NCBI GenBank assembly: GCA_007694185.1
Contig: RECD01000171.1
Coordinates: 1 to 44,164 of the forward strand
DNA: 44,164 nucleotides
DNA from: Planctomycetaceae bacterium
Lineage (GTDB): Bacteria; Planctomycetota; Planctomycetia; Pirellulales; Pirellulaceae
Direction of reading: 5' to 3'
Position numbers and translations under genes: made by a program. This document shows positions 363 to 15,458 of this stretch, one piece after another. A model generated the notes under the pieces. The model was not told the DNA's origin, did no database searches, and saw nothing but the letters and a program-made list of their open reading frames with translations. Within the stretch, counting starts at the first letter, position 1. The number at the start of each line of letters is the position of its first letter.

Positions 363-3300
363 TCAAGCGTCCGGCGTGATCGATTGGTAGATCGCTTTGG
401 ACAGGACATCAAACGCCATGCTGCCGAACTCTTGGTCGTCCATGTACCGCGTGACGATCTGGTCGTTCTCAGCCATCCGCTGCACGATCAGGTTTTCGAG
501 GATGCCGCGCAGTCCGAGCTGGAACTTGTCGAGAGGATTCGCCTGCCGCATTTGAATCACCTGTTGGTTGGTGACGGCCTTCTGGTGGATCTGCTCGAAG
601 AACAACCGATCTTCCTCGGTAAAGGCCGTCCCGAACCGCTTGTTCAGCGCCGTGATGATCTCCGACAATGGGGCGAGTTTTTCTTCCGTCTGCCCTGTTC
701 CGACATCGGTGGGGCTTTTGACCGTTTGCGGATCACCTTCGCGAATCTCGATCGCGCCGTCGAACGTTTCCTGCATTCGGAAGTACTGAAGCTCGACCTC
801 GTCGTCGATCCGTACCTGCTCCGTATCGCGGTTCGTGGACAGTTCACGCAGCAGCAACCAACCGTAGCTGTAGAGCATCTCCAGCTCACTATCGGTGTAG
901 GGCATGATCTGGCTGAGGAACGCGTAGAGCCGCACGTAGCTTTGCAACCTGTCGCGAAACGCCTTCCGTTTGACTTCCTCCTCGATCGCCTGGAAACGGT
1001 CGATGGCGGGCTGGAGGTACTTTCGCAACTCGGCGTGATCCTTGGGACGCTGCCGCGCCGTCGGTTTGTAGAAAGCCTTGGCGAACGCCTCCACGTCGAT
1101 CCAGTGGTAGACCTGGGCCGCGTTCAATTCGTCTTTCAGTTTCTCCAGCTTGTGCGGGTCCGATACCTGCTCCAATCCGGTCGCGTCGTAGTAGGGCTTG
1201 AACGCCTTGTAGATGTCCTCCGACTTGTTGACGAAATCGAGCACGAACGGCTCGTCCTTCCCGGGAATCTTCCGGTTCAACCGGGAAAGGGTTTGCACCG
1301 CTTGGACGCCGTCCAGCCGCTTGTCGACGTACATGGCGCAGAGCAACGGCTGGTCGAAGCCGGTTTGGTACTTGTTGGCGACCAACAGCACCTGGTAATC
1401 GGGCGACGCGAACCGTTCGGGCAATTGCTTTTCGCTGATCGGCTTGCCGCTGACGCAATCGACGTTCATCCCGGGTTCGGTGTATTCGCCGCCGGTGTCG
1501 GGGTCGGTGACCTTCCCGCTGAACGCGACCAGCGGCCGGACATCGGGGATCTGGTTGTCCGCGATGTATCGCTGGAACGCCTCCATGTAGCGGACGGCGT
1601 GCAACCGAGACGAAGTCACCACCATCGCCTTGGCGCGTCCCTTGAGCCGCGTCATCACCTTTTGCCGAAAATGGGTGATGATCACCGCCGTTTTCTGTTC
1701 GATGTTGTGCGGATGCAGCGTCATGAACTTTGCCAGTTCCCGAGCCGCTTTCTTCGTCGGTAAGTTCGGGTCGTCGTCGATCGCCTTGACCAAGTTGAAG
1801 TAGGTGGCATAGGTCGTGTAGTACTGGAGCACGTCAAGGATGAAACCTTCCTCGATCGCCTGCCGCATCGAGTAGAGGTGGAACGGTTCCGGCAAACCGC
1901 CAGCACCCTTGCGTCCGAACAGCTCCAGTGTTTTTCCCTTGGGCGTGGCGGTGAAGGCAAAGAAGCTGAGGTTGGGCTGTTTGCCCCGAGACTGCATCAC
2001 CTGGTTCAGCCGATCCTGCCAATCCGGTTCCTCGTCGCCATCCTCGACGGTAGCGGACGCTCCCCCCAGGATCTCCTTCAGCTCGCGGGCCGTCTCGCCG
2101 GTCTGGCTGGAGTGCGCTTCGTCGACGATGACGGCATAGCGGCGGCTGGCGATCTCCGCTTCCCACGCTTTCGCCTGGGCCTTCTGGGCTGTCGTTGCCT
2201 GCTCGCCACGCTCGACCCCGGCCGCGTGCAGCAGCCCCTTCAGGACGAAGGGGAACTTCTGCAACGTCGTGATCACGATCTTGGTGCCGTCGATCAACGC
2301 CGCGGCGAGCTGCTTCGAGTCTTGGTCGATCGCCTTGACGACCCCTTGGGCATGCTCGATCTGGTAGATCGCGTCCTGCAACTGCCGGTCGAGCACTTGG
2401 CGATCGGTGATCACGACGACGCAATCGAAGACCTTCGTGTCCTGGGCGTCATGCAGGCTGGCCAGACGGTGTGACAACCAGGAAATGCTGTTGGTCTTGC
2501 CGCTGCCCGCCGAGTGCTGAATCAGGAAGTTGCGTCCCGGCCCTTCGCTTCGCGAGGCGGCGACCAGCTTGCGGACGGCATCCAATTGGTGATAGCGGGG
2601 AAAGATCATCGTCTCCTTGGTCACCCAGCGCTGCCCGCCCCGGCCGTCGTCGACCTTCTCGTCCGCCTTTTCCAGGAACAGGAAATGGCCGAGGATGTCC
2701 AAGAAGCTGTCGAACTGGAGCACCTCCTGCCAAAAGTAGCCGGACCGGTAACCCGAGGTGTGCTGCGGATTGCCTTTGCCGCAAATGATCTGGCCCGGAT
2801 GGCTGCCGCGATTGAAGGGTAGGAAATGGGTCTTCGCTCCGGCCAGTCGCGTCGTCATGTAAACCTGGTCGGGGTCGGCTGCGAAATGCACGAGCGCCCG
2901 CTTCTTGAAGTCAAACAGGGGGGCCCGCGGGTCGCGGTCCTCGCGGTACTGGCGGACGGCGTGCTGCCAGTTCTGGCCGGTACCGGGGTTTTTCAGCTCG
3001 ATCGTCGCCACGGGCACCCCGTTGACCGCCAACATCATGTCCAGCGTACGGGTGTCGCCGGGGTGACAGGGCGCCTGCCGCAGCACGGTCAGCCGGTTCT
3101 TGCCGTAGAGCCCCAGCACCTCCGCGTTGGCCCCGTGAGCGGGCTTGAAGTAGGCCAGCCGAAACGACTTGCCGTAGAACTTGAAACCGTGCCGCAGCAC
3201 GTGCAGCGAGCCCTTGGAGTCGAGTTCCTTGACCAGCGTGGTGAGCAGCAGTGGTTCCAGCCCCGTGCCGTGCAACGCCTGCATCTCGGCCCACAGCTTC

Positions 3301-3452
3301 GGCTGCGTGTCGGCGATGAACGCCATCACCTGAGCCGGGAACAGGGCCCGTCCCTTGTCCCAATCCGCGTGGCTAGCGCTCGTCCAGCCGCTCTCGGTCA
3401 GCAGGATCTCCTCGACGTAGGATTCGAAGGCCAGCTCGTTGGTTTGGTTCAT
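363..3452 (-). CDS. hsdR: Type I restriction enzyme R (HsdR) subunit
   Basis: A 1029-residue protein, the normal size for HsdR, the motor and nuclease subunit of a type I restriction-modification complex. The N-terminal PD-(D/E)xK nuclease is visible: an Asp in LDMML near 138, then ELK at 152-154, followed by a QY pair near 168. The helicase Walker A (SAGSGKT) ends near residue 320, a DEAH-type box (VDEAH) follows, and SF2 motifs such as TATPKG and QTLSRLNR are present. The ATG has no clear Shine-Dalgarno sequence. It is the last gene of the leftward hsd locus, 174 bp after the DUF4276 gene, and 11-bp repeats lie directly before its start, so it may be controlled separately. The reading frame looks intact. 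Confidence 0.96.
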   Translation of the reverse strand: MNQTNELAFESYVEEILLTESGWTSASHADWDKGRALFPAQVMAFIADTQPKLWAEMQALHGTGLEPLLLTTLVKELDSKGSLHVLRHGFKFYGKSFRLAYFKPAHGANAEVLGLYGKNRLTVLRQAPCHPGDTRTLDMMLAVNGVPVATIELKNPGTGQNWQHAVRQYREDRDPRAPLFDFKKRALVHFAADPDQVYMTTRLAGAKTHFLPFNRGSHPGQIICGKGNPQHTSGYRSGYFWQEVLQFDSFLDILGHFLFLEKADEKVDDGRGGQRWVTKETMIFPRYHQLDAVRKLVAASRSEGPGRNFLIQHSAGSGKTNSISWLSHRLASLHDAQDTKVFDCVVVITDRQVLDRQLQDAIYQIEHAQGVVKAIDQDSKQLAAALIDGTKIVITTLQKFPFVLKGLLHAAGVERGEQATTAQKAQAKAWEAEIASRRYAVIVDEAHSSQTGETARELKEILGGASATVEDGDEEPDWQDRLNQVMQSRGKQPNLSFFAFTATPKGKTLELFGRKGAGGLPEPFHLYSMRQAIEEGFILDVLQYYTTYATYFNLVKAIDDDPNLPTKKAARELAKFMTLHPHNIEQKTAVIITHFRQKVMTRLKGRAKAMVVTSSRLHAVRYMEAFQRYIADNQIPDVRPLVAFSGKVTDPDTGGEYTEPGMNVDCVSGKPISEKQLPERFASPDYQVLLVANKYQTGFDQPLLCAMYVDKRLDGVQAVQTLSRLNRKIPGKDEPFVLDFVNKSEDIYKAFKPYYDATGLEQVSDPHKLEKLKDELNAAQVYHWIDVEAFAKAFYKPTARQRPKDHAELRKYLQPAIDRFQAIEEEVKRKAFRDRLQSYVRLYAFLSQIMPYTDSELEMLYSYGWLLLRELSTNRDTEQVRIDDEVELQYFRMQETFDGAIEIREGDPQTVKSPTDVGTGQTEEKLAPLSEIITALNKRFGTAFTEEDRLFFEQIHQKAVTNQQVIQMRQANPLDKFQLGLRGILENLIVQRMAENDQIVTRYMDDQEFGSMAFDVLSKAIYQSITPDA

Positions 3453-3626: not shown

Positions 3627-4193
3627 TCACTTCATTCGCCTGACAAGGTCTCGCCAATTGCCGCATGACCAAGCAAGCGACGGGGGCAAGGGCGGATCGT
3701 TCGTTTGGTTCGCGCATCGATCCGCCAAGAACCTCGCAGCGTCGGCCGCCTGCCGGTTGTACTGAACACGGGGCCCCTCCTGCGACTCGTCCGTGCTGCC
3801 CGTGTGCAAGAATTGAATCCAGTTCTCTAAGCGATCCTTCGCGAACGCGAAGACGATCTGGGCAAACTCCGTTTCGGTGATCCCGGCATCGCGGGCAACC
3901 CGCCAAAACTCAGCCTTCAACGCTTCGCAATCCGGTTTGTCGTGATCGACATCGGCGAACACGACGAGGGTTGTATCGGCCCCCGCGCGGATGCAGGCTC
4001 GCAACGCCGCTGGAACCCGCTGGATCAACTCGCCGCGTCCGCCACAGGGGATGGGCCGAACCAGATTGCTGCCGACGAAGGGACGAATCCAACTCGGCTT
4101 GAGTGCTTTGACCAGGGCATTGATGAACACCGGGTCGATGCTGCGTCCCTGCTTCCCTTCATGCAGGCAGACGATCTGGGTCCGCTTAGCCAT
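3627..4193 (-). CDS. DUF4276-family, TOPRIM-like protein
   Basis: A 188-residue protein resembling DUF4276. The visible pattern is a short beta strand ending in HEGK (Glu12) and later a strand VVFADVDHD with Asp81, Asp83 and Asp85. A Glu followed by a DxD motif is the arrangement of TOPRIM metal sites. RLENWIQF fits the conserved R-x-E-x-W block of such proteins. I chose the ATG at 4193, preceded by a G-rich run, because upstream residues are low complexity. It overlaps the end of the ATPase gene by 8 bp, so the two are translationally coupled and probably act together. By analogy with OLD and PARIS-type pairs it may be the nuclease effector of a two-gene defence system; that role is inferred. 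Confidence 0.75.
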   Translation of the reverse strand: MAKRTQIVCLHEGKQGRSIDPVFINALVKALKPSWIRPFVGSNLVRPIPCGGRGELIQRVPAALRACIRAGADTTLVVFADVDHDKPDCEALKAEFWRVARDAGITETEFAQIVFAFAKDRLENWIQFLHTGSTDESQEGPRVQYNRQAADAARFLADRCANQTNDPPLPPSLAWSCGNWRDLVRRMK

Positions 4194-5280
4194 GGACCCA
4201 CCCCCGCGCGACCGCCTCGCCGGGGCTGAGACCGGCGGGTACCTGGAGCGGTCCGATTCGCGTCGGGGAGAGGTGAGTGTCACGCCACAGGTAGATGCCG
4301 TCCTCCTCGCCCGCGCTGCCGAGAATCTCGGGATGGTGGGAAATCAGGATCGCTTGATGGTGCTCGTCGAGCAGTTCGCGAATCGCCAGCACCCAGGGCT
4401 GCAACTCGGGCAGGCCGACGTAATTGTCGGGTTCGTCGATCACCAGCGTGCTCGCCGCGTTCGTTTCCAGGGCGGCACGAATCATGTACAGCCCGACAAG
4501 CGACTTCTCGCCGTCGGACAGCTCATGGAAGAATGTGTCGACGCCGTCGAAGCGGAGTTGCAACGCTTTCGTGTTCATCCCGGCGTCGACCAGCTTGAAC
4601 GACCGAAAGTCTGGCCAAACCGTCTGCAACGACTCGCGGAGGGCGTCGGTCCATTCCTGCTCCTGGGAGAGCGACCGGTACCAGGAAATCAGATTGGTCA
4701 GGTGGAACGAGGGGCTTTTCGCCTCGCCTCGGCTTTCCGGTTCCATTGCGGTGGGGTTGGGGCGGAGGATCAGGAGCCTGGCGAGCGCCGTTTGCAGGAT
4801 CTCGATCTCCCTCAGCGGACCGTTCGGTTGGATCGCCCCGAGCGCAGCCCGCCGCCAATCGAGCGGGAATTGTCCCGGGGTACCGTCCCACTTGGTGAAC
4901 CGGACGCCGTCCAGATCCCGCACGAACAGCTCTCGGCCGTCGCAGACCGCTCGCTCGCGGACGACGCGTGGTTTCAGGGCGTTATCCGCTTGTTCCAGAT
5001 CAAGCTGGTACTGGAACATGCGACCTTGGGACGTGACCTCCAGCTCGAACTGCTGCGTCGTCTGGTGGAGCCATTTGGTGAACTCCAGTTGCCGGACATC
5101 CTTGTCTCCGTCGCCCCCGAGGTAGGCGTCGCCCGTCGCCAGGTCGCGCAACAGCTTGATCGCTTCGATCACGGAGCTTTTGCCGGAGCCGTTCGGCCCG
5201 CACAGCACGCCGAAGGAAGCGAACTTGGCCTCGAAGGCGACGAGGCAACGGAAGTTGTTCGCGTAAAGTCGAGTGATCAT
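4186..5280 (-). CDS. ABC/AAA15-type ATPase, OLD/RecF-like
   Basis: A 364-residue ATP-binding protein of the RecF/OLD/SMC-like class. Walker A is GPNGSGKSS at 28-36, the ABC signature is LSDGEKS at 254-260, Walker B with the catalytic Glu is TLVIDEPDN at 278-286, and an H-loop (ISHHPEIL) lies near 313-320. It has no TOPRIM domain of its own; that function may be supplied by the overlapping downstream DUF4276 protein. The ATG at 5280 starts the family's typical MITRLYANNFRCL strand; the frame is open further upstream but that part looks like noise. It sits between hsdS and hsdR and is not a standard restriction component. A conflict-sensing or abortive defence role is inferred from context. Confidence 0.88.
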   Translation of the reverse strand: MITRLYANNFRCLVAFEAKFASFGVLCGPNGSGKSSVIEAIKLLRDLATGDAYLGGDGDKDVRQLEFTKWLHQTTQQFELEVTSQGRMFQYQLDLEQADNALKPRVVRERAVCDGRELFVRDLDGVRFTKWDGTPGQFPLDWRRAALGAIQPNGPLREIEILQTALARLLILRPNPTAMEPESRGEAKSPSFHLTNLISWYRSLSQEQEWTDALRESLQTVWPDFRSFKLVDAGMNTKALQLRFDGVDTFFHELSDGEKSLVGLYMIRAALETNAASTLVIDEPDNYVGLPELQPWVLAIRELLDEHHQAILISHHPEILGSAGEEDGIYLWRDTHLSPTRIGPLQVPAGLSPGEAVARGWVHG

Positions 5281-5440
5281 GCCATCGAACCGGTGAACGG
5301 AAAGGCGGAATAGCCGAATGAATTGTACTCGGGGGTGTCCGTCACGACGCACCCGCGTGCCGGACCGCGGGAACGCTCTCGGCAGGCCAGACTTCCCCAG
5401 GGTAAAGGATCGGCGGTGCGAGCGACGGGTGGCAAGGGAA

Positions 5441-6820
5441 TCATGCGACCGCCGCCTCGCGGACATCGATCTTGCCGGTGACGGCGGCGGTGATCAGGGC
5501 GGTGCGGTATTCCTGCAACCGCTCGATCGCCCCCTCGACCTTGGTGACCAACGCATCCAGCTTGGAGGTCTCGGCGTCGAGGTAGTCGGCGATCGCGGCT
5601 TGCTCGGGGAGGGGCGGTAGCAATGCCGGAAATCGATTGAGGACACCAGACTCCAGTTTTCGCGTACCGTGGGCGGATTCGTCCGCAAAACTCACGAAAG
5701 TCTTCTTGAATCCAATGAGCATCCATGCCAAATACAGCGGCGTAATGCGATTGCCGCATGTCAGTGCCTTCATGTCCTGATTGATCGTCACTGGAATTGA
5801 CGTTCGGGCTACTGGAAATGAGTGGGCGAGAATCATGCCACGAACGACAACCAAGACCGAATCAACTGGATGCAGGCTGAGCAGTCCTGCGTCAAGCACT
5901 TCCTGGGTAACGTGGTCTTCAGAATCAAGTATCAGGGGAACTTTCATATCTTTCGGTGTAACCCATGGAATCGTTCCCTCCCAAAAAACTGCTCGCGATT
6001 TATCTGGCGTGGCGCCGCCCCTGAATTGCACCAGATAGCCGAGAGGAACCGCCTCCCAGTGTTCCGGCATCTCCCCCAACCACTCGACGCCGGAGGGTTT
6101 GAGGGTTGGGTTTTCGGGGAGTCCGGCTTTTCGGGCGGCGGCTGGGGGCAGGCCTCGGGTGACGGTGCGGGCGATGAGCGCGGTCCGTTTCTCCTTCAGC
6201 CGCTCGATCAACTCCCGCTTCTTCCCCACCAACCGATCAATCCGCGCCGTCTCCCGATCCAAAAAGGCGGCGATGGCTCGTTGCTCGGTGAAAGGAGGAA
6301 AGGCTGCGGGCGTATCCAGGTAGCAATTGGAATCAAGGTTCTGAATCCCAGTCGTTTGCTTGATCGCGACGTAATTTAACTTCCCTCGATAGAGCGCTGC
6401 GTGAACGAAGCACCAGAACCTGGCGTCCATACCTTCTCGGACCGGCATTCGAGCAACAAAGTTTGAGCAAACCGCTGGAAACTCATGGCCGAAATAGACG
6501 ACCTGTCCGACAAGCTGCCGTTCTCCTCCACCAGATTTTTCTAGCAGCAGCTCTCCCTTTCGCAGTGCCCTGGTCCTCATTTGCGAGCGCTCAACAGATC
6601 GCATTGTCGACGACTCGGGATCAACCAAGAAGTTGTCTCGATCGAAGTCCGCCACACGTACACAAACGATGTCTTCGTCACCAGTGGGTTCTTCTCCCCA
6701 AGTACCATTGATGCAACCACGCACTGACCATTTGACTCTGGTCGTTTCCCAATGCTCCGGCACGTCCCCCAGCCATTCGATGCCGCTCGGCTTGTATACC
6801 GGATAGCGCCTGCGTTTCAT
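5441..6820 (-). CDS. hsdS: Type I restriction enzyme S (HsdS) specificity subunit
   Basis: A 459-residue specificity subunit with two target-recognition halves. Each half opens with the same motif, KPSGIEWLGDVPEHWE near residue 10 and KPSGVEWLGEMPEHWE near 242. Each ends in a conserved helical spacer, EQRAIAAFLDRETARID near 180-230 and EQAAIADYLDAETSKLD near 405-455. It sets the sequence recognised by HsdM and HsdR. The ATG at 6820 overlaps the TGA of the last repeat-array frame (ATGA) and uses the G-rich run GGGGGGAGAG supplied by the final repeat unit as its ribosome binding site. The 160 bp that follow, before the ATPase gene, contain no evident gene. It appears intact. Confidence 0.95.
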   Translation of the reverse strand: MKRRRYPVYKPSGIEWLGDVPEHWETTRVKWSVRGCINGTWGEEPTGDEDIVCVRVADFDRDNFLVDPESSTMRSVERSQMRTRALRKGELLLEKSGGGERQLVGQVVYFGHEFPAVCSNFVARMPVREGMDARFWCFVHAALYRGKLNYVAIKQTTGIQNLDSNCYLDTPAAFPPFTEQRAIAAFLDRETARIDRLVGKKRELIERLKEKRTALIARTVTRGLPPAAARKAGLPENPTLKPSGVEWLGEMPEHWEAVPLGYLVQFRGGATPDKSRAVFWEGTIPWVTPKDMKVPLILDSEDHVTQEVLDAGLLSLHPVDSVLVVVRGMILAHSFPVARTSIPVTINQDMKALTCGNRITPLYLAWMLIGFKKTFVSFADESAHGTRKLESGVLNRFPALLPPLPEQAAIADYLDAETSKLDALVTKVEGAIERLQEYRTALITAAVTGKIDVREAAVA

Positions 6821-7029
6821 CTCTCCCCCCTTCGCGTTTTCGCGTCTTCGCGTGACACGCCGGACCCCTGACTCACGCGAAGTCGCGAAGGCGCGAAGTT
6901 CGGATGCTGGTGTTCCAATCCCGTCATCCCGGTCTCCCCCTTCGCGTCTTCGCGTCTTCGCGTGACACCCCGGACCCGTGACTCGCGCGAAGTCGCGAAG
7001 TTCGGATGCTTGTGTTCCAATCCGGTCAT
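6817..7029 (-). CDS. Repeat-encoded small ORF B (two units)
   Basis: A 70-residue frame made entirely of two array units, each beginning MTGLEH-x-HPNFA and ending REDAK with a basic tail. Its ATG at 7029 overlaps the stop of ORF A (ATGA), and its own TGA overlaps the hsdS ATG (again ATGA). A GGGGGAGA run precedes the start. It may be a real translated peptide or a coupling device that carries ribosomes to hsdS. The first unit has a local frame change (ATSRESRVRGVT instead of APSRLRASQ), which argues against strict peptide selection. Function is unknown. Confidence 0.3.
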   Translation of the reverse strand: MTGLEHKHPNFATSRESRVRGVTRRREDAKGETGMTGLEHQHPNFAPSRLRVSQGSGVSREDAKTRRGER

Positions 7030-7425
7030 CCCCGTCTCCCCCTTCGCGGCTTCGCGTCTTCGCGTGACACCCCGGTCTCTTGACTCGCGCGAAGTCGCGA
7101 AGGCGCGAAGTTCGGATGCTTGTTTCCGAAGTCTTTCATCCCTCTCCCCTTCGCGTCTTCGCGTGACACCTCGGACCCTTGACTCGCGCGAAGTCGCGAA
7201 GGCGCGAAGTTCGGATGCTCGTGTTCCACTCCCGTCATGCCCGTCTCCCCCTTCGCGTCTTCGCGTGACACGCCGGACGCTTGACTCGCGCGAAGTCGCG
7301 AAGGCGCGAAGTTCGGATGCTTGTTCCCGACGTCTTTCATCCCTCTCCCCTTCGCGGCTTCGCGCCTTCGCGTGATACCCTCGGTTCCTGATTTACCCGT
7401 AGGCGGGATGACGCGGTATTCTTGT
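6824..7425. repeat. Tandem array of six ~100-bp units
   Basis: The forward motif CGTGACAC recurs at 6851, 6961, 7063, 7162 and 7264, and as CGTGATAC at 7371, giving steps of 110, 102, 99, 102 and 107 bp. On the minus strand each full unit reads: G-rich Shine-Dalgarno-like run, ATGA, about 30 variable bases, CATCCGAACTTC, CTTCGCG/CGCGAAG inverted repeats, then GAAGACGCGAAG. There are no unique spacers, so this is not CRISPR. The unit nearest 7425 is fused to the GxxExxY reading frame; the unit nearest 6824 supplies the ribosome binding site of hsdS. Two unit subtypes exist, coding MTG-x-EH and MKD-x-GN. Confidence 0.9.
7026..7340 (-). CDS. Repeat-encoded small ORF A (three units)
   Basis: A 104-residue frame covering three in-frame units (spacings of 99 and 102 bp). 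They begin MKDVGNKHPNF, MTGVEHEHPNF and MKDFGNKHPNF, and each continues APSRLRASQ and VSREDAK. Its ATG at 7340 overlaps the TGA of the GxxExxY gene (ATGA), and its stop overlaps the ATG of ORF B in the same way. The product would be strongly basic with no recognised domain. Whether it is a protein or only a translated linker cannot be decided from sequence. Confidence 0.33.
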   Translation of the reverse strand: MKDVGNKHPNFAPSRLRASQASGVSREDAKGETGMTGVEHEHPNFAPSRLRASQGSEVSREDAKGRGMKDFGNKHPNFAPSRLRASQETGVSREDAKPRRGRRG

Positions 7426-7837
7426 GATTGTTCACGATGCGTTTGGTTCCTTCCTTGAACGTTGCCGCCCCGAAATTAATTAGCAAGCCTAGCGGCAGGT
7501 TCAAAAGTCGAAGGTACGTGAGAACTTGCTTGGCGTGTACGGGCGCCAAATTCTCTACGGACTTGAGCTCCACCAACAACATTTCGTTCACGATCAAATC
7601 GGCTCGGAACCCTTCGTCGAATTTCAATCCCAAAAGCTCGATCGGCACCGCCGTTTGCCGCTGGACATGGAGGCCGCGCCGCTGGAGCATCTTCGCGAGG
7701 ACCACTTCGTAAACAGTCTCCAAAAGTCCTGGCCCAGCCTCGACGTGCAGTTTGAAGCTACAATCGACTACGATTTCAGACAGCTCCTCCACGTCCTTGG
7801 GTGGCGCTGCGCCATCGTGTGAGATGTCGTCGCTCAC
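7337..7837 (-). CDS. GxxExxY protein, PD-(D/E)xK nuclease-like, with repeat-derived tail
   Basis: A 166-residue protein of the GxxExxY family. The name motif is GLLETVY at 37-43. A nuclease-like core follows: FRADL (Asp80) and VELK (Glu90, Lys92), the D...ExK arrangement of PD-(D/E)xK enzymes. The start is GTG at 7837: it overlaps the hsdM stop by 4 bp (GTGA) and is preceded by the near-perfect Shine-Dalgarno sequence AAGGAGGTGAC. Residues from about 139 to 166 (tail motifs SRLRVNQ, VSREGAK, PRRGEG) are the translation of the first unit of the repeat array, so the C-terminus is repeat-derived. The family's cellular role is unsettled; its place between hsdM and hsdS suggests a defence or DNA-processing role. 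Confidence 0.85.
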   Translation of the reverse strand: MSDDISHDGAAPPKDVEELSEIVVDCSFKLHVEAGPGLLETVYEVVLAKMLQRRGLHVQRQTAVPIELLGLKFDEGFRADLIVNEMLLVELKSVENLAPVHAKQVLTYLRLLNLPLGLLINFGAATFKEGTKRIVNNHKNTASSRLRVNQEPRVSREGAKPRRGEG

Positions 7838-9984
7838 GCCGTCACCTCCTTGAGCATCTCCAGGATCTCGGCTTCCAACCGCTTGATGTCGGTCTCGATG
7901 ACTTCCAGCTCTCGCGGCGGCTCGTAGCGGTAAAAGTGGCGGTTGAGCGGGATCTCGTAGCCGATCTTCGTCTTGCTGGCGTCGATCCAAGCATCCGGCA
8001 CGTGCGGCAACACCTCCCGCCGAAAATAGTCCTCGATGTCCTCCTTCAGCGGCACGGTCTCGGTATCCCGCAACTCGGGGTCGGACTCGGGGTTGCCGTG
8101 CTTGTCGACGCAGATTTCGGCGCCGGAGTCCCGTTCGCCGAGCGCCGCCAGGATCAGCTTCTGTTCCGCGGCGCTCAGCCGCAGCTTGCGTTTGCGGACA
8201 AACTCCCCGAGTTCGTCGAGGAACTCTTGGCGGTCCAGGAACAATTTCTCGTTCGTCGCCTTGCCGAAGGCATTCAGCAGCTTGCGGATTTCCTGCTGCC
8301 GTTTTTCACCCGCCGCGATCTCCTGCTGGCGAACCGCCTCGGCCTTCTTGGCACTGGACGCCAGTTTCTTGAACGCGGACTGTTCATCCAGCAACGCGAT
8401 CCGATCGGGGCTGGGCATGAAGTTTAGCCGCAGGGGGCGTTCGACCGTGATCTTGGCGTAGCCGAAGTCCTCGTTGTCGAACACCTTGCTGACGACTCGC
8501 TGGCGCTGGACCGGCTGGTGGGTGATCGGGTCCTCCTCGGTGAAGGTGCGGGTCTGGCCGTTGCGGAAGTTGCCAAAGATCTTCGTCAGTTCGCCGATGT
8601 GGTCGGGGTCCTTCGCCTTGTCGGTCGGATCGCCGATGCGGCGGCGTTTGTTGCCGAGGCTCTTTTCCATCTGCACCCAGAACTGGCGAGCGTCGATCAG
8701 TTGCACCTTGCCCCGCCGTGGCTTCTCCTTGCGATTCGTCAGCACCCAGACGTAGGTCGAGATGCCGGTGTTGTAAAAGAGTTGCTCCGGCAGCGCGACG
8801 ATCGCCTCCAGCCAGTCGTTTTCGATGATCCAGCGGCGGATCTCGCTTTCCCCGCCCCCGGCGTCGCCCGTGAACAGCGGCGAGCCGTTGAACACGATCG
8901 CGATCCGGCTCCCTCCGTCATCGGCCGGACGCATCTTGGCGATCATGTGCTGGAGGAACAGCAGCGCCCCGTCATTCACGCGGGGGGTACCGGCGCCGAA
9001 GCGTCCGCCGAACGCCAGCGAGTCCCGTTCGTTCTCGACGTACTTCTGTTGCTGCTTCCATTCGACGCCAAAGGGCGGATTGGCAAGCATGTAGTCGAAG
9101 GTCCATTTCTTGCCGTCGGGGGCGCGGTCGAAGCCATCCTTGGTGAACGTGTCGCCGAGGATGATGTTATCGGCGTCCTCGCCCTTGATCAGCATGTCCG
9201 ACTTGCAGACCGCCCAGGCTTCGTCGTTCCAGTCCTGGCCAAACAGCTTCGGTTGAGCGTCGGCGTTCAGTTCGTGGATGTACTTCTCGGCGACTGACAG
9301 CATCCCGCCGGTGCCGCAGGCCGGGTCGTAGATCGTCTTGACGACGTGGCTGCGGGCAAGGTCCTTTTCGGGGGAGAGCAGCAGGTTGACCATCAACTTG
9401 ATCACCTCGCGCGGCGTGAAGTGCTCTCCGGCTTCCTCGTTCGATTGTTCCGCCCCGATCCGGATCAGCTCCTCGAACACGTAGCCCATTTGGACGTTAT
9501 CGACGCGATCCGGTGACAGGTCGATCGCCGCGAACTGCTTGACGACTAGGTAGAGCAGATCCTTGTCCGTCATCCTGGCGATCTGGGTCTCGAAGCCGAA
9601 CCGTTCCATGATCGCCCGGACGTTCGGCGAGAAGCCGTTGATGTAGTTGTTCAGGTTGGGGGCGAGCTGGTTCGCGTCGTCGAGCAACCCGTTCAACCCG
9701 CTCTTCTCGGGTGGTTTCGCCAGGGTGAACTTGGAGAGGTTGTAGAACGGCACGCCCGCGACCTGCGCCAAGCGATGGCGGATGATGTTGTCGCCCTTAC
9801 CCTTGAGCAACGCATGTTCCTTCAGTACGGCGGCCCTGGTCGGCGCCAGGATGCAATCGAAGCGGCGGAGGACGGTCAGCGGCAGGATGACCTTGCGGTA
9901 CTCGTTCCGCTTGTAGGGCCCACGCAGCAGGTTGCAGATACCCCAGATGAAGCTGGCGATTTGCGAGTGGTTCTCGGCGGCCAT
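7834..9984 (-). CDS. hsdM: Type I restriction enzyme M (HsdM) methyltransferase
   Basis: A 716-residue N6-adenine DNA methyltransferase, the modification subunit that also joins HsdR and HsdS in the restriction complex. The SAM-binding motif I is DPACGTGGM at 220-228 and the catalytic motif IV is NPPF at 302-305. The N-terminal helical domain (FIWGICNLLRGPYKRNEY) is typical. It is longer than classical HsdM of about 500-530 residues because of a C-terminal helical extension, as in the large-HsdM subgroup. The ATG at 9984 is the only good start. It is the first gene of the leftward operon, and its stop overlaps the next start (GTGA). Confidence 0.96.
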   Translation of the reverse strand: MAAENHSQIASFIWGICNLLRGPYKRNEYRKVILPLTVLRRFDCILAPTRAAVLKEHALLKGKGDNIIRHRLAQVAGVPFYNLSKFTLAKPPEKSGLNGLLDDANQLAPNLNNYINGFSPNVRAIMERFGFETQIARMTDKDLLYLVVKQFAAIDLSPDRVDNVQMGYVFEELIRIGAEQSNEEAGEHFTPREVIKLMVNLLLSPEKDLARSHVVKTIYDPACGTGGMLSVAEKYIHELNADAQPKLFGQDWNDEAWAVCKSDMLIKGEDADNIILGDTFTKDGFDRAPDGKKWTFDYMLANPPFGVEWKQQQKYVENERDSLAFGGRFGAGTPRVNDGALLFLQHMIAKMRPADDGGSRIAIVFNGSPLFTGDAGGGESEIRRWIIENDWLEAIVALPEQLFYNTGISTYVWVLTNRKEKPRRGKVQLIDARQFWVQMEKSLGNKRRRIGDPTDKAKDPDHIGELTKIFGNFRNGQTRTFTEEDPITHQPVQRQRVVSKVFDNEDFGYAKITVERPLRLNFMPSPDRIALLDEQSAFKKLASSAKKAEAVRQQEIAAGEKRQQEIRKLLNAFGKATNEKLFLDRQEFLDELGEFVRKRKLRLSAAEQKLILAALGERDSGAEICVDKHGNPESDPELRDTETVPLKEDIEDYFRREVLPHVPDAWIDASKTKIGYEIPLNRHFYRYEPPRELEVIETDIKRLEAEILEMLKEVTA
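7835..7851 (-). promoter_or_regulatory. Strong RBS and GTGA overlap starting the GxxExxY gene
   Basis: The minus strand reads AAGGAGGTGACGGCGTGAGC. AAGGAGGTGA matches the anti-Shine-Dalgarno sequence, and the GTG start shares its last two bases with the hsdM TGA. This decides the start and implies re-initiation after hsdM. Confidence 0.8.
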
Positions 9985-10012
9985 TCCAGTATTTCGTTCC
10001 TAGTGTGTCAAA

Positions 10013-11018
10013 AGTGGCGTCGGTGCCGTGTGACGCATCCGACGGCGCTGCCGGTCCAAGCCGAGCGGCGGATCATTTGCGACCCTGACGCCCTCCGCGA
10101 GGCCAAGCTCGGGCGGGGTTTCTGGGACGCGTCCATCTCGGCGGCTCGGTAGGTCGTCAGGGAACTCCGTCAGACCAGCGTAAACGCGTCCCAGCCCCAA
10201 GGTTGTCAGGTTTCAGGGATGCTGCGTGCCTGCGGCCAGCGGGCGTTCGGGCGGGCTTGTCACAGCATCCGCCTTTTCCCCCAGGCGTCGACATCGATCG
10301 GCAGGTAGCCTAACCCATCGCACGGGCCTCGATCACCCACGTGGTGAAGTTTGGCCCGCTGTCCGAAGCCCCGGGTCGGAGCGATCGCCATTTCGGCGGT
10401 CAGGTGTCCCGTCAGCGGCGAACGCACGGCGGATGTGTGGCGTCGCGACAGGGGTCAACAGCCTCGCCTCGCCCGAGCGTGCAACCGAAGCCACGGGGAC
10501 CACAGCGAAGCCGTAGGTTCGCCGCACACGTCCAGACTGGCGGGGACTGGTTTCGCTGGACGTGCTTGGCGGCGAACACGCGGCAGAGCCCGTTTCAGCA
10601 GGCCACGATCGGCCCTGCCGTGGATGGGGCTCCGTCGCGCCGGAGGCGGAACTCCAGCGGCGTCAACTCGAGCCACCGCGCCCAGCCCACGGGCCGGTGG
10701 GGACCGATTCGGCAGTCCCCATGGGCCGCAAAACGCGCGGGTTATCAATCCGCTGAACCGGCGGATTACGATCCCGATAGCGAAATCGACGAACGTGGTT
10801 GACCGGGCAGTAGCAATCCGGCTGGCTTTGCTCGCAGCCCAGGGTCGCGTTGTGTGTGCCGACTGCCCCAGCCGGTGGACCGGCAAGCGACTGGTGCGCC
10901 GCGATCAAGCAGAGCGCATGGCCCAAGCCGGGGACCATACGAGATCCGCGCGGCGGTCACCATTTGCGGTCAGGCTCGCTCGCGGCCTTCGGGCTGATCC
11001 CGCCGCGTGCTGATCGGC
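10013..11018. other. Gene-free 1-kb region rich in inverted repeats
   Basis: No believable gene is seen; frames open on both strands encode Arg/Ala/Pro-rich noise. Perfect inverted repeats are dense: 10122-10132 with 10184-10194 (11 bp), 10217-10224 with 10263-10270 (8 bp), 10517-10535 with 10556-10577 (two 9-bp blocks), 10698-10704 with 10715-10721 (7 bp), 10747-10753 with 10761-10767 (7 bp), and 10949-10956 with 11000-11007 (8 bp). GCGGCGG plus CATTTGCG occurs near both ends (10065-10104 and 10950-10987). It could hold a structured RNA, a replication or transfer origin of the island, or decayed sequence. Confidence 0.6.
10517..10577. repeat. Long two-block inverted repeat
   Basis: GTTCGCCGC-a-CACGTCCAG is followed 20 bases later by CTGGACGTG-cttg-GCGGCGAAC. 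Both 9-bp blocks pair perfectly, with a 1-versus-4-base internal loop. It is the strongest fold in the gene-free stretch beside hsdM. Confidence 0.75.
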
Positions 11019-12382: not shown

Positions 12383-12624
12383 TGACGCCAATCGACATGG
12401 ACAAACTCGGTGCGAAAGTCGCCGAGATCGTTACGGCCAAGCTAGCGAATCGCCCGCGCTTGGTCGATCGACACGAACTCGGACGCATCCTGAAATGCTC
12501 AGTTCCGACTATCGAGCGGTTGCAGAGGAAAGGTCTGTTTCCAGTGGTACGTCTTGGACGGACCGTTCGGTACGACGTTGACCAAGTCGTTGAGGCACTG
12601 ACAGCCAAGGGCGGTGGGGAATGA
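12379..12624 (+). CDS. Small excisionase/MerR-type HTH protein
   Basis: An 81-residue protein with one winged HTH of the excisionase type: LGRILKCSVPTIERLQRKGL followed by the wing RLGRTVRYDVDQVVEAL. It overlaps both neighbours by ATGA junctions (12379-12382 and 12621-12624), so the three genes form a coupled operon. It resembles a single-domain version of the preceding protein and probably arose by duplication. A directionality factor for the nearby integrase is the simplest role. Confidence 0.8.
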   Translation: MMTPIDMDKLGAKVAEIVTAKLANRPRLVDRHELGRILKCSVPTIERLQRKGLFPVVRLGRTVRYDVDQVVEALTAKGGGE

Positions 12625-13889
12625 TCACCGCAGAGCAGGTCCCACCAATTGGACACTCGACAGCGAGCAACGTCTCGCCCGGGTCAGTCGACGATGCCTA
12701 TCAACTGGCTCGGCTGTACGACTCATTGGGATTCTCCATGATTCCGATCCGACCGGGCACAAAGGTCGCTGCCAGTGGCTGGAAGCGAAATCAGACGGAA
12801 CGCGCGTCGATCGATGAGGTGCTCCCCTGGATCGCGGCCGGTAATGGCTTGGGTGTTGTGCTAGGGCAGGTCAGCAACGGCTGGGTTTGCCGTGATTTCG
12901 ATGACGAGAGCGCGTTCGAGCGTTGGGCGGAGGCATACCCGCAGTTGGCAGACTCTCTGCCGCGGTCAAGGACCGGAAGAGGGTTCCACGTTTACGTTCG
13001 CGTGGCCGAAAAAGCGAAAACCAAGGCCTGGCGCGATGGAGAATTACGGGGCGACGCCGCGTATGTTGTGATCCCGCCGTCTGAGCATCCAACAGCGGCT
13101 GGTGCATACCAGTGGATCATCCATCCGCATCAAGGGGAACCGGCAAGGGTTCTGGCAGCTACCGGCCTGAATCGATCCTGGCTTGTTACAGAGAAGATAG
13201 AGAAACAGAGTACACAAAATGGCTTTTCTGCCGACTCTGTCGTCTCTGTCTCTCTGTCGAAAACCGTTGGGGCCGTATCGGTAGGCCAGTGGGAGGCAAT
13301 TCAAGACGCTATTGAATTGACGGTGCCCCCGGCCATCGGCAACCGAAGCGGCGGTAAATTTAACGGGCTGTTCCGTCTCGCCAGGAAGGTGATCGCAATC
13401 CTTGGAGGACGGCCTGGCCCGGACTTAACGGAGCAAATCGGCATGGCTTGGTTCGAGGCGGCACAGCATGTTATCGGAACAGGTGATCCCGGCGTGACTT
13501 GCGCAGATTTCGCACATGCGATTGAGAGCGTCCGTGCGCCCGATTCTGGTGATCCTATCGCAATGGCGTTCGAAGCTTCGAAAGCATTGCCGATACCGCC
13601 ATTCGTTCAGCGGTTCGCGGCGTTCAACGAATCTGCTCCGACAATTCAGCTCGCAAAGCTGGTGGTGTCACTCGATCAACGATTCAGTGGCGGCGTCTGG
13701 TACTTGTCCTGCCACGTGGCTGGCAGGCTGGTGGGTATGAAACACTCGCACGCTCACAGCGTACTGAAAAAGTGGGTGAAAGATGGCATTCTCAAGATCG
13801 TCGAGCCTGGAAAACCTGGAAAACCAGGCAACAAAGCAACTCGTTACCAGTTCGTTGGTGGACGAGTCGAGAATTCGGCTGAAGCGTAG
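12621..13889 (+). CDS. Prim-Pol (bifunctional DNA primase/polymerase) protein
   Basis: A 422-residue replication protein with an N-terminal archaeo-eukaryotic-type Prim-Pol domain. Catalytic motifs are visible: CRDFDDE (DxD) near 92, RGFHVY near 118, and VVIPPSEH near 146 followed by GAYQW. The start ATG overlaps the previous stop, with a GGTGGGGA run upstream. The C-terminal 80 residues look like a winged helix (VWYLSCHVAGRLVGMKHSHAHSVLKKWVKDG). No helicase domain or helicase neighbour is present, so it would need a host or helper helicase. A lower-GC Ser/Thr-rich linker near 195-220 separates the halves. It suggests the island can replicate autonomously or semi-autonomously. Confidence 0.87.
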   Translation: MITAEQVPPIGHSTASNVSPGSVDDAYQLARLYDSLGFSMIPIRPGTKVAASGWKRNQTERASIDEVLPWIAAGNGLGVVLGQVSNGWVCRDFDDESAFERWAEAYPQLADSLPRSRTGRGFHVYVRVAEKAKTKAWRDGELRGDAAYVVIPPSEHPTAAGAYQWIIHPHQGEPARVLAATGLNRSWLVTEKIEKQSTQNGFSADSVVSVSLSKTVGAVSVGQWEAIQDAIELTVPPAIGNRSGGKFNGLFRLARKVIAILGGRPGPDLTEQIGMAWFEAAQHVIGTGDPGVTCADFAHAIESVRAPDSGDPIAMAFEASKALPIPPFVQRFAAFNESAPTIQLAKLVVSLDQRFSGGVWYLSCHVAGRLVGMKHSHAHSVLKKWVKDGILKIVEPGKPGKPGNKATRYQFVGGRVENSAEA

Positions 13890-14136
13890 GTCGAAATCCT
13901 ACCCATGTCCGCTGCTGATCCCAGAAGCAAAACAGTCGCCTGCTTGCGGCGTTGCAGCGAGTGGCAGACAGCAAAATACCTCCTTAACCACCGATGGACC
14001 GGCTTCGCAATGAAAGCTTCACGTTCCGGGCTGCTGGCGGTTGTACATCGTTACGGCGACGGCGCGATAACCAACACGCCAAGACCCATTCCCCCTTTTT
14101 TTTCGTTCATGGGCTGCATGCCCTGGAGTAATTGCA

Positions 14137-15423
14137 ATGGCAGGTGTGACACCTCTGGTCCGAGACGGCCGGGAAGGTTTTCGCGTTCGGTTCTACGATG
14201 CGGCCAAGCGGCGGCGGGAAATCTACCTGCCCGGATCGGGCCGATCGGTCCAGCGGCTGGCTAAAGCCGTGGCGGCCCACTGCGATGCCCTGGTCCAAGC
14301 AAAGGGGGCAAACGTCCCGGCCGATCCTGCGGCGATTGCCTGGGCCAATGGGACGGAGGGCAGGTTGCGGGAAAACCTGGTGGCGTGGGGGCTGGCCGAT
14401 CCCGTTTCCCCGAAGTTGGCGACCGATGCCGGTCGCTACCTGGGGGCGTTCGTCGATGCCTACATTGAAAGCCGAACCGATGTGAAGGAGTCAACCCAAA
14501 CCAACTACAAGCAAACCCGGCGGCTGTTGGTCGAGTTTTTTGGGGACCGTCAACTGCTGCGTTCCATCACTGCGGGGGACGGTGCCCGTTGGCGGCGATG
14601 GCTGTCGGCCGAAAGGGGGCTGGCCGTGGCGAGTTGTTCCAAGCACACGAAGCGGGCAAAAACCCTGTTTGCTGCTGCGGTGGCCGATCGACTGATTGCC
14701 GAGAGCCCGGTTGCCGGATTGAAGGGGGGCGACGAATCAAACCCGCTGCGGCGGCGATTCATCACCCCCGAAGTATCGGCCCGGGTGCTGGCGGCCTGCC
14801 CCGATGCCGATTGGCGGCTGATCTTCGCGCTGGCTCGGTGGTGCGGGCTGCGGTGCCCGTCCGAGGTGCGGGGGCTGCGGTGGTCCGATGTCGATTGGGA
14901 AGAGGACCGGTTGCGGATCGAGAGCCCGAAAACGGGTCTGCGGTTTTGTCCGATCTTCGCGGAGGTCCGGCCGGTGCTGGCCGAGGCGTTCGATCTGGCC
15001 CCGACGGGCTCGGAGTTTTGCGTGTCGCGGCACCGGGGCGGATTATCAAACCCGCGAACCCAATTCGGCCGGATTTTGAAACGGGCGGGGGTGGTGCCCT
15101 GGCCGAAGTTGTTCGTCAACCTGCGGTCGACCCGTCGGACGGAATTGCAGGAAATGTTTCCGGGGCATGTGGTCGATGCCTGGTTGGGCCATTCCGGGGC
15201 GGTGGCGGCCAAGCATTACCTACAAGTGACCGATGAGCACTGGGCGCGTGCGTCTGAATCCCGTCCCCCCACCAGTCCCCCCATCGTTGCCGATCCGAGC
15301 CCATCCGCGGCAATCACGGACATAAAAAAACCCCGGGAAAACCCGGGGTTTGATGGTTCCGGCTATCTGCCGGATGCTAGCGAAGTGACCCCTACGGGAC
15401 TCGAACCCGTGTTACCGCCGTGA
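14137..15423 (+). CDS. Tyrosine-type recombinase/integrase
   Basis: A 428-residue integrase. The N-terminal SAM-like core-binding region is near 105-200 and the catalytic domain near 205-370. The first catalytic Arg is in CGLRCPSEVRGLRW. The usual HxxR is replaced by NLRSTR. The later His is in WLGHSG and the nucleophile Tyr in AKHYLQ, as in integrases I associate with planctomycetes. GGAG lies 8 bases before the ATG. The last 35 or so codons run through a hairpin terminator and into the 3' half of tRNA-Glu (TGLEPVLPP is the tRNA read backwards), so the functional protein ends earlier in conservation terms. The position marks tRNA-Glu as the attachment site. Confidence 0.93.
   Translation: MAGVTPLVRDGREGFRVRFYDAAKRRREIYLPGSGRSVQRLAKAVAAHCDALVQAKGANVPADPAAIAWANGTEGRLRENLVAWGLADPVSPKLATDAGRYLGAFVDAYIESRTDVKESTQTNYKQTRRLLVEFFGDRQLLRSITAGDGARWRRWLSAERGLAVASCSKHTKRAKTLFAAAVADRLIAESPVAGLKGGDESNPLRRRFITPEVSARVLAACPDADWRLIFALARWCGLRCPSEVRGLRWSDVDWEEDRLRIESPKTGLRFCPIFAEVRPVLAEAFDLAPTGSEFCVSRHRGGLSNPRTQFGRILKRAGVVPWPKLFVNLRSTRRTELQEMFPGHVVDAWLGHSGAVAAKHYLQVTDEHWARASESRPPTSPPIVADPSPSAAITDIKKPRENPGFDGSGYLPDASEVTPTGLEPVLPP
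15324..15350 (-). terminator. Intrinsic terminator of tRNA-Glu
   Basis: On the minus strand CCCCGGG-TTTT-CCCGGGG is followed by a run of seven T. It lies 38 bases beyond the tRNA 3' end and inside the integrase reading frame. Confidence 0.85.
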
Positions 15424-15458
15424 AAGGGCGATGTCCTAGGCCGCTAGACGAAGGGGCC
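15386..15458 (-). tRNA. tRNA-Glu (anticodon TTC)
   Basis: A 73-base cloverleaf without encoded CCA. The acceptor GGCCCCT pairs with AGGGGTC with one G-T pair; the discriminator is A. The anticodon loop CTTTCAC carries TTC, and the T-loop is GGTTCGAGTC. Its 3' half overlaps the integrase 3' end, so it is the probable attachment site of the island, which extends to lower coordinates from its 3' end. A TGACGAT-cgaa-ATCGTCA hairpin lies just upstream at 15467-15484. Confidence 0.95.

What the first reader, a model, noticed from the sequence alone, without database searches (positions are those of the whole stretch)
6817..7837. Self-resetting repeat array: an unbroken chain of start/stop overlaps from hsdM to hsdS
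Seen directly: hsdM and the GxxExxY gene overlap by GTGA (7834-7837). GxxExxY and ORF A overlap by ATGA (7337-7340), ORF A and ORF B by ATGA (7026-7029), and ORF B and hsdS by ATGA (6817-6820). Each repeat unit has a G-rich Shine-Dalgarno-like run directly before ATGA. A ribosome arriving in frame reads through into the next unit; one arriving in the frame that reads TGA stops and can restart on the overlapping ATG. Units of 99 and 102 bp keep the frame; units of 107 and 110 bp do not, and the restart absorbs the shift. I infer a device that keeps the M:S subunit ratio coupled whatever the repeat number, with repeat number possibly tuning HsdS level.
Basis: partly seen in the sequence, partly recalled or inferred. 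Interest (0 to 1): 0.78.

Follow-up and report, generated by a model that had tools for sequence, protein, structure and literature searches.

The report
Repeat array relaying translation to hsdS
Between two genes of a bacterial DNA-defence system lies a string of copied gene junctions, each with its own stop-and-restart signal, so that protein synthesis can probably pass through the repeats to the last gene; the coupling itself is ordinary for such genes, but a repeat array carrying it is unusual.

Summary
Comparison explains most of it. In 55 scored loci of the order, hsdS overlaps the ORF before it in 30 of 32 cases directly after hsdM and in 20 of 23 with something between; the same rule at random positions gives 27% NTGA. 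So the chain is normal hsdM-hsdS translational coupling carried through an insertion. The same genome holds a second hsdM-GxxExxY / array-hsdS system (across a contig break) with a different 173-bp unit, which is a tandem duplication across the GxxExxY/hsdS junction: one unit matches the GxxExxY tail at 73 of 75 positions, and the units begin with a copy of the hsdS start. Copying the junction copies the restart signal. In silico, all 32 subsets of the window's units lead to hsdS in frame. Translation of the array and tuning of HsdS by unit number are untested, and unit openness alone is not significant. Verdict: a new variant of known coupling, built from a nuclease-associated palindromic repeat.

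The parts
7834..9984 (-). hsdM (type I modification subunit), stop overlaps next start by GTGA
   Evidence: PF02384/PF12161; sequence
7337..7837 (-). GxxExxY protein (PD-(D/E)XK_3 nuclease family), GTG start with strong SD AGGAGGTGA; its 3' end is part of the repeat
   Evidence: TIGR04256/PF13366; D, E and K of the motif invariant in 9 aligned sequences (catalytic role recalled); SD -14.1 kcal/mol; TRF row to 7380
6821..7340 (-). tandem array of five units (102, 99, 110, 102, 107 bp), each ATGA + short head + octamer palindrome + G-rich run
   Evidence: TRF; unit table
7026..7340 (-). ORF A, 104 aa, three units read in one frame
6817..7029 (-). ORF B, 70 aa, two units read in one frame
7834..7837 (-). 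GTGA overlap hsdM/GxxExxY
7337..7340 (-). ATGA overlap GxxExxY/ORF A
7026..7029 (-). ATGA overlap ORF A/ORF B
6817..6820 (-). ATGA overlap ORF B/hsdS, SD -10.6 kcal/mol
5441..6820 (-). hsdS (specificity subunit)
   Evidence: PF01420
363..3452 (-). hsdR (restriction subunit), same direction
   Evidence: PF04313, PF18766

Best explanation
A type I restriction operon whose hsdM and hsdS are translationally coupled by a short overlap (ancestral; inferred from relatives) acquired a GxxExxY gene between them, with its octamer-repeat ends. The GxxExxY-tail/hsdS-start junction was then duplicated in tandem several times. Each copy carries a G-rich Shine-Dalgarno-like run and an ATGA, so a ribosome leaving hsdM can be handed on by successive termination-reinitiation, or by in-frame read-through where the unit is a multiple of 3, until it reaches hsdS. 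Selection for coupling keeps arrays whose chain is unbroken. Shown: the anatomy, the second array, the duplication origin of the second array, and the overlap rule in relatives. Inferred: that the array is translated, that coupling is what selection preserves, and that the window array arose in the same way as the better-preserved one on C272.
For: Overlaps and units. Survey: of 55 scored loci, direct neighbours 28 NTGA + 2 one-nt of 32; separated 20 NTGA of 23. Null: same picking rule at random positions of these loci, 900 NTGA of 3300 (27.3%); single ATGs 804 of 6279 (12.8%). Second array: C192 has hsdM-TTGA-GxxExxY-ATGA and C272 has units of 173, 173, 173 bp, then hsdS-GTGA-hsdR. The 3' parts of the C272 units match the C192 GxxExxY tail at 70/75, 73/75 and 63/67 (from the scores and the printed alignment); 5' parts match hsdS at 36/41 (one unit aligned) or 65, 61 and 64 of 105 ungapped. 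In the window 5 of 5 units align with the GxxExxY tail above all 500 mononucleotide shuffles. Repeat insertions before hsdS with the overlap kept: window, C272, G080 (L166), G136 (L182), G013 (L221), G146 (L215). 32 of 32 unit subsets reach hsdS in frame in silico. Literature: EcoKI hsdM/hsdS overlap by 1 nt and are coupled (PMC3510504, passages); in E. coli coupling is almost abolished at +38 nt and the last 15 nt of the upstream gene suffice (PMC10666635, passages), so a 520-nt untranslated insert should uncouple hsdS.
Against: No expression data. The window unit's head does not match hsdS (10-12 of 29), and the match of its palindrome part to the GxxExxY tail is partly what any two octamer tracts would give. 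Unit openness is not significant. Two of six array SD duplexes are weak in strength and spacing. Duplication copies ATGA anyway, so retention may need little selection. C192 and C272 adjoin only by inference. The six repeat insertions are hand-picked: the periodicity scan flagged only L182 of the 23 separated loci; L166, L215 and L221 were read by eye. One array outside hsd (L263) also has chained ATGA ORFs, though they stop 64 nt short of the next gene. Some separated loci have short hsdS frames (L204 50, L217 59, L174 159 codons).
Confidence: 0.62

Rival explanations
1. By-product: the palindromic repeat spread and expanded here by slippage, and the ATGA chain merely reflects what was copied; coupling is not needed and the array does nothing.
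For: Octamer tracts are dispersed in the genome and in relatives; stop-free units are expected from composition; duplication copies the junction automatically.
Against: hsdS overlaps the preceding ORF also where the insert is a gene without a flagged octamer tract (most of the 20 of 23 separated loci); in 8 of 9 loci with octamer arrays elsewhere at most one chained ORF was found per tested stretch (whether those reach the next gene was looked at only for L263).
Confidence: 0.2
2. hsdS is expressed independently (own promoter or strong de novo initiation at its SD), and the array is an untranslated spacer.
For: hsdS has a good SD of its own, -10.6 kcal/mol.
Against: No sigma-70-like promoter at 5300-10300, but shuffles also give only 0.9 on average, so this says little; the chain would be superfluous, yet overlap is the rule in relatives. 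In the second system hsdS has a weaker SD (-5.0) than its units (-10.3 to -11.4).
Confidence: 0.08
3. RNA-structure rheostat: each octamer arm can pair within its unit (SD and ATGA free) or with the next unit (SD and ATGA in the loop), so translation opens restarts and unit number sets HsdS output.
For: Predicted hairpins: five intra-unit -27.3 to -39.7 and four inter-unit -32.4 to -45.8 kcal/mol, competing for the same arms; 6817-7385 folds better than all 100 shuffles, z -5.57.
Against: Any palindromic repeat gives such energies; no consistent preference for one pairing; no strains with other unit numbers were available.
Confidence: 0.1

Closest known systems
hsdM-hsdS translational coupling, e.g. 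EcoKI (PMC3510504, passages)
   Same: overlapping stop and start codons, M and S in one transcript and different frames
   Different: here a nuclease gene and a repeat array lie between, with four overlaps in place of one
Termination-reinitiation at ATGA/TGATG gene pairs (PMC6728339, PMC10666635, passages)
   Same: ATGA junctions with SD-like runs, subunits of one complex
   Different: relay over repeat-coded mini-ORFs; the passages seen treat single junctions of gene pairs
Rickettsia palindromic elements and other in-frame MITEs (recalled; PMC10969869 seen in search listing only)
   Same: dispersed palindromic repeat compatible with translation
   Different: not inside one ORF; carries stop/restart signals; lies beside a GxxExxY gene
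Repeat-number variation in type I systems (EcoR124 spacer repeats, recalled; M. pneumoniae subunit S repeats, PMC8836594 listing only)
   Same: tandem repeats in a type I system
   Different: those lie inside hsdS; here they lie between genes and hsdS is unchanged

Membership tests
Type I restriction-modification operon | hsdM, hsdS and hsdR with their domains | tested here: met
Translationally coupled gene pair (termination-reinitiation) | stop/start overlap or spacing within about 10 nt | tested here: met
   GTGA, ATGA, ATGA, ATGA
Translationally coupled gene pair (termination-reinitiation) | downstream translation depends on upstream translation | not testable with these tools
   needs reporter or ribosome profiling
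GxxExxY (TIGR04256) | family score over cut-off | tested here: met
   123.8 bits, cut-off 35
MITE / REP-like palindromic repeat | dispersed copies with inverted arms in the genome | tested here: inconclusive
   octamer-pair matches on 11 contigs, of which C42 and C106 look like coding coincidences; both arms together seen in the window, C192, C272 and C99; several others show one arm (by eye)
MITE / REP-like palindromic repeat | mobility: target duplications or empty sites | not tested
   no empty site compared
Phase-variable repeat locus | change of repeat number switches the frame of the gene | tested here: not met
   in silico 32 of 32 subsets of the five units lead to hsdS in frame; no strains compared

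The most novel reading that the evidence does not exclude
The array is a frame-proof variable-number repeat that works as a translational rheostat: added units insert further reinitiation steps and so set the HsdS:HsdM ratio without ever switching hsdS off. It is built by a widespread, unnamed mobile cassette (a GxxExxY nuclease gene with inverted octamer-tract ends) whose ends carry start signals that let it enter operons without uncoupling them.
Probability: 0.15. Interest if true: 0.8.

Novelty: new variant of a known kind. Interest (0 to 1): 0.52.

Why it matters
Tandem repeats in restriction systems are usually read as switches that break reading frames (recalled). Here repeats sit in an operon in a form in which any number of the present units leads to the next gene's start, and the reason is visible in the second array: the unit is a copied gene junction. 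If translated, it is a natural multi-step reinitiation relay, a direct way to measure how much each restart costs and whether subunit ratio limits restriction. It also points to a GxxExxY-repeat cassette, found in several phyla, for which the searches made (open-licence papers only, listings capped) showed no description.

Tried and rejected
Openness of the units as evidence for coding: rejected, 2000 shuffles per unit give P 0.26-0.65. Conservation of the C272 unit peptides: weak; pN/pS 0.97, 0.33 and 0.38 on 16-19 differences against 0.81-1.24 in the two other frames (three pairs of three units, not independent). Independent promoter: none found by a sigma-70 scan, uninformative. Rfam: two tRNAs in the window at gathering thresholds. 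Same unit in relatives: the unit-2 peptide shows tandem copies only in this genome among 241 family genomes; the 102-nt unit DNA matches 27 other genomes of the 241 only in part, mostly its octamer tract, with three candidates scored per genome. Unit lengths avoiding 1 mod 3: seven distinct lengths seen (99, 102, 107, 110, 114, 152, 173), none 1 mod 3, but (2/3)^7 is about 0.06 and they are not independent; not counted as proof. Window unit head as an hsdS copy: not supported, 10-12 of 29. My first null for the overlap count (12.8% of ATGs) was too low for the picking rule, which may choose among start codons near the expected place; the matching null is 27.3%. Structure prediction and fold search were not used.

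Rows dropped before the count: all rows outside the window's genome were fetched except G512:C103. Of the loci fetched, L222-L225 were not given to the count and 5 were dropped as short or replaced by longer copies (L167, L189, L194, L200, L227). Of the 71 given, 8 had no HsdM match (L215, L216, L218-L221, L242, L243, all fetched for other reasons) and 8 no HsdS match, leaving 55. L217 entered through an hsdS hit. L184/L185 are near-identical loci of two genomes and L207/L209 come from one genome, so the 55 are not independent. The two systems of the window's genome are not in the 55.

Full report
What is there. On the minus strand the window carries a type I restriction operon: hsdM (9984..7834), a GxxExxY gene (7837..7337), a five-unit tandem array (7340..6821), hsdS (6820..5441), an AAA ATPase gene and hsdR (363..3452). 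Each of the four claimed overlaps is real and at the stated place. The six ATGs of the array and of hsdS are all ATGA, each after a G-rich run. The best pairing with the genome's own 16S tail is -7.7 to -10.6 kcal/mol against a background median of -3.2 and a 5% point of -8.5; the two -7.7 sites pair directly against the ATG and are weak. Unit lengths are 102, 99, 110, 102 and 107.

What is chance. From a unit ATG there is no stop other than the junction TGA, but 2000 shuffles per unit show that this is expected from composition (P 0.26-0.65). The openness of the ORFs is therefore not evidence; the junctions are. Because every junction is ATGA and lengths are 0 or 2 mod 3, any subset of the five units leads to hsdS in frame (32 of 32 in silico). 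A unit of 1 mod 3 near the end would not.

The rule in relatives. I searched the last 73 residues of HsdM in 241 genomes of the family (42 with a match) and 396 of the order (37 with a match; the sets overlap and include the window's genome), fetched stretches behind the matches and scored 55 of 71 loci given (dropped rows are listed under Tried and rejected). Where hsdS follows hsdM directly, 28 of 32 overlap by NTGA and 2 by one base. Where something lies between, 20 of 23 hsdS starts overlap the ORF before them by NTGA, and 19 of 23 hsdM stops are NTGA. The same rule at random positions of these loci finds NTGA in 900 of 3300 (27.3%). The inserts differ: genes of 119 to 617 codons and mini-ORFs. 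Four loci (L174, L179, L181, L213) carry what looks, by eye, like a copied hsdM 3' tail just before hsdS; in L181 no hsdS overlap was called. Coupling of hsdM to hsdS is known from EcoKI (PMC3510504, passages read). Experiments on other gene pairs show that coupling is almost abolished at +38 nt spacing (PMC10666635, passages read), so an insert keeps hsdS coupled only if it is itself translated (inference).

The second array. The same genome has contigs C192 and C272. C192 holds hsdM-TTGA-GxxExxY and breaks off at ATGAT. C272 starts inside a unit, has three complete units of 173 bp (2 mod 3), each ending on ATGA, then hsdS and, by GTGA, hsdR. The contigs probably adjoin (inferred: they end in the same repeat). 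The origin of this unit is readable. Its last part matches the GxxExxY tail of C192 at 70/75, 73/75 and 63/67 positions in the three units, and its first part matches the start of hsdS at 36 of 41 in the unit aligned or 65, 61 and 64 of 105 without gaps. It is a tandem duplication across the GxxExxY/hsdS junction, which copies the Shine-Dalgarno run and the ATGA each time. The units' SD runs (-10.3 to -11.4) are stronger than that of hsdS itself (-5.0). In the window the palindrome part of 5 of 5 units aligns with the window's own GxxExxY tail above all 500 shuffles, partly because both are octamer tracts; the 29-nt head has no clear source.

Other insertions before hsdS. Repeats between hsdM or GxxExxY and hsdS were also seen in G080 (L166), G136 (L182), G013 (L221) and G146 (L215). 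Only L182 was flagged there by the periodicity scan; the others were read by eye, so this is a hand-picked set. With the two arrays of this genome, hsdS starts on NTGA in 6 of 6. In L166 no GxxExxY was found and the mini-ORF begins with what looks like a diverged hsdS start. In L182 the chain runs ATGA-21 aa-ATGA-GxxExxY-ATGA-38 codons in frame with hsdS; an earlier link there is a 26-nt overlap. In L221 one link is a 14-nt overlap and the contig begins inside GxxExxY, so hsdM is not seen. In L215 hsdM and GxxExxY read as one ORF. As a contrast I fetched 20 loci with unit matches elsewhere in relatives: 9 hold octamer tandem arrays, of which 8 show at most one chained ORF per tested stretch; one (L263) has five, but its chain stops 64 nt short of the next gene. 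Only for L263 was the next gene looked at.

The repeat itself. Octamer tracts follow GxxExxY genes widely. Of 76 usable loci of the 80, 53 have an octamer-periodic tract within 250 nt after the domain, against 12 of 1297 random windows. In 44 of 72 usable loci the two sides of the gene share an inverted 13-mer, against 9 of 1154 random placements; a direct 13-mer is shared in 16 of 72 against 19 of 1154. Several of these loci, such as those of sphingomonads before one and the same gene, are not independent. In general GxxExxY stops are NTGA in only 30 of 76, so the unbroken chain belongs to the operon context and not to the gene.

How it most likely works. A ribosome finishing hsdM restarts on GxxExxY, then on ORF A, ORF B and hsdS, with units of 99 and 102 read through in frame and units of 107 and 110 ending on the next ATGA. 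Shown: anatomy, copied junctions in the second array, overlap rule in relatives. Inferred: translation of the array and selection for coupling. Untested: any effect of unit number on HsdS. Competing hairpins of -27 to -46 kcal/mol within and between units are predicted and could add a further layer, but any palindromic repeat would show them.

Literature. Searches for GxxExxY (two papers; one read in its passage, a passing mention; the other seen in the listing), for PF13366/TIGR04256 (one paper, listing only), for hsdM/hsdS with coupling, tandem or intergenic repeats (listings, the last capped at 10 of 33) and for planctomycete or REP-like repeats (none, 20 of 59 listed) showed no description of such an array. 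The library holds open-licence papers only.

On recount I replaced the null by the stricter 27.3%, corrected the hsdS match to 36 of 41, added the two other units' matches, and marked which insertions were read by eye.

Noticed in passing
L056-L135: GxxExxY genes of several phyla are flanked by inverted octamer tracts (44 of 72 loci share an inverted 13-mer, 9 of 1154 at random), like the ends of a mobile cassette; in many the tract codes the C-terminus (such as ASSRLRVNQ).
   Followed up: partly
L174, L179, L181, L213, just before hsdS: Apparent copies (by eye) of the hsdM 3' tail precede hsdS behind inserted genes, as if the coupling junction itself is duplicated when genes enter.
   Followed up: partly
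window 12621-15458: Prim-Pol gene, phage-type integrase gene and a tRNA overlapping the integrase ORF's end on the other strand: the operon may lie on an integrated element.
   Followed up: no
window 4186-5280 (-): AAA/SMC-like ATPase gene between hsdS and hsdR.
   Followed up: no
L215 (G146:C146): A truncated hsdM and a GxxExxY domain read as one ORF whose ATGA opens hsdS.
   Followed up: no
L027 (G037:C21): GxxExxY stop overlaps by ATGA the start of a gene that looks like a restriction helicase (recalled from its N-terminus, not tested); another operon insertion of the cassette.
   Followed up: no
L261 (G248) 2259-3434 and L263 (G226) 1-528: Octamer-palindrome tandem arrays of 186-bp and 177-bp period; no hsd gene was seen in L263, L261's neighbours were not examined.
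   Followed up: partly
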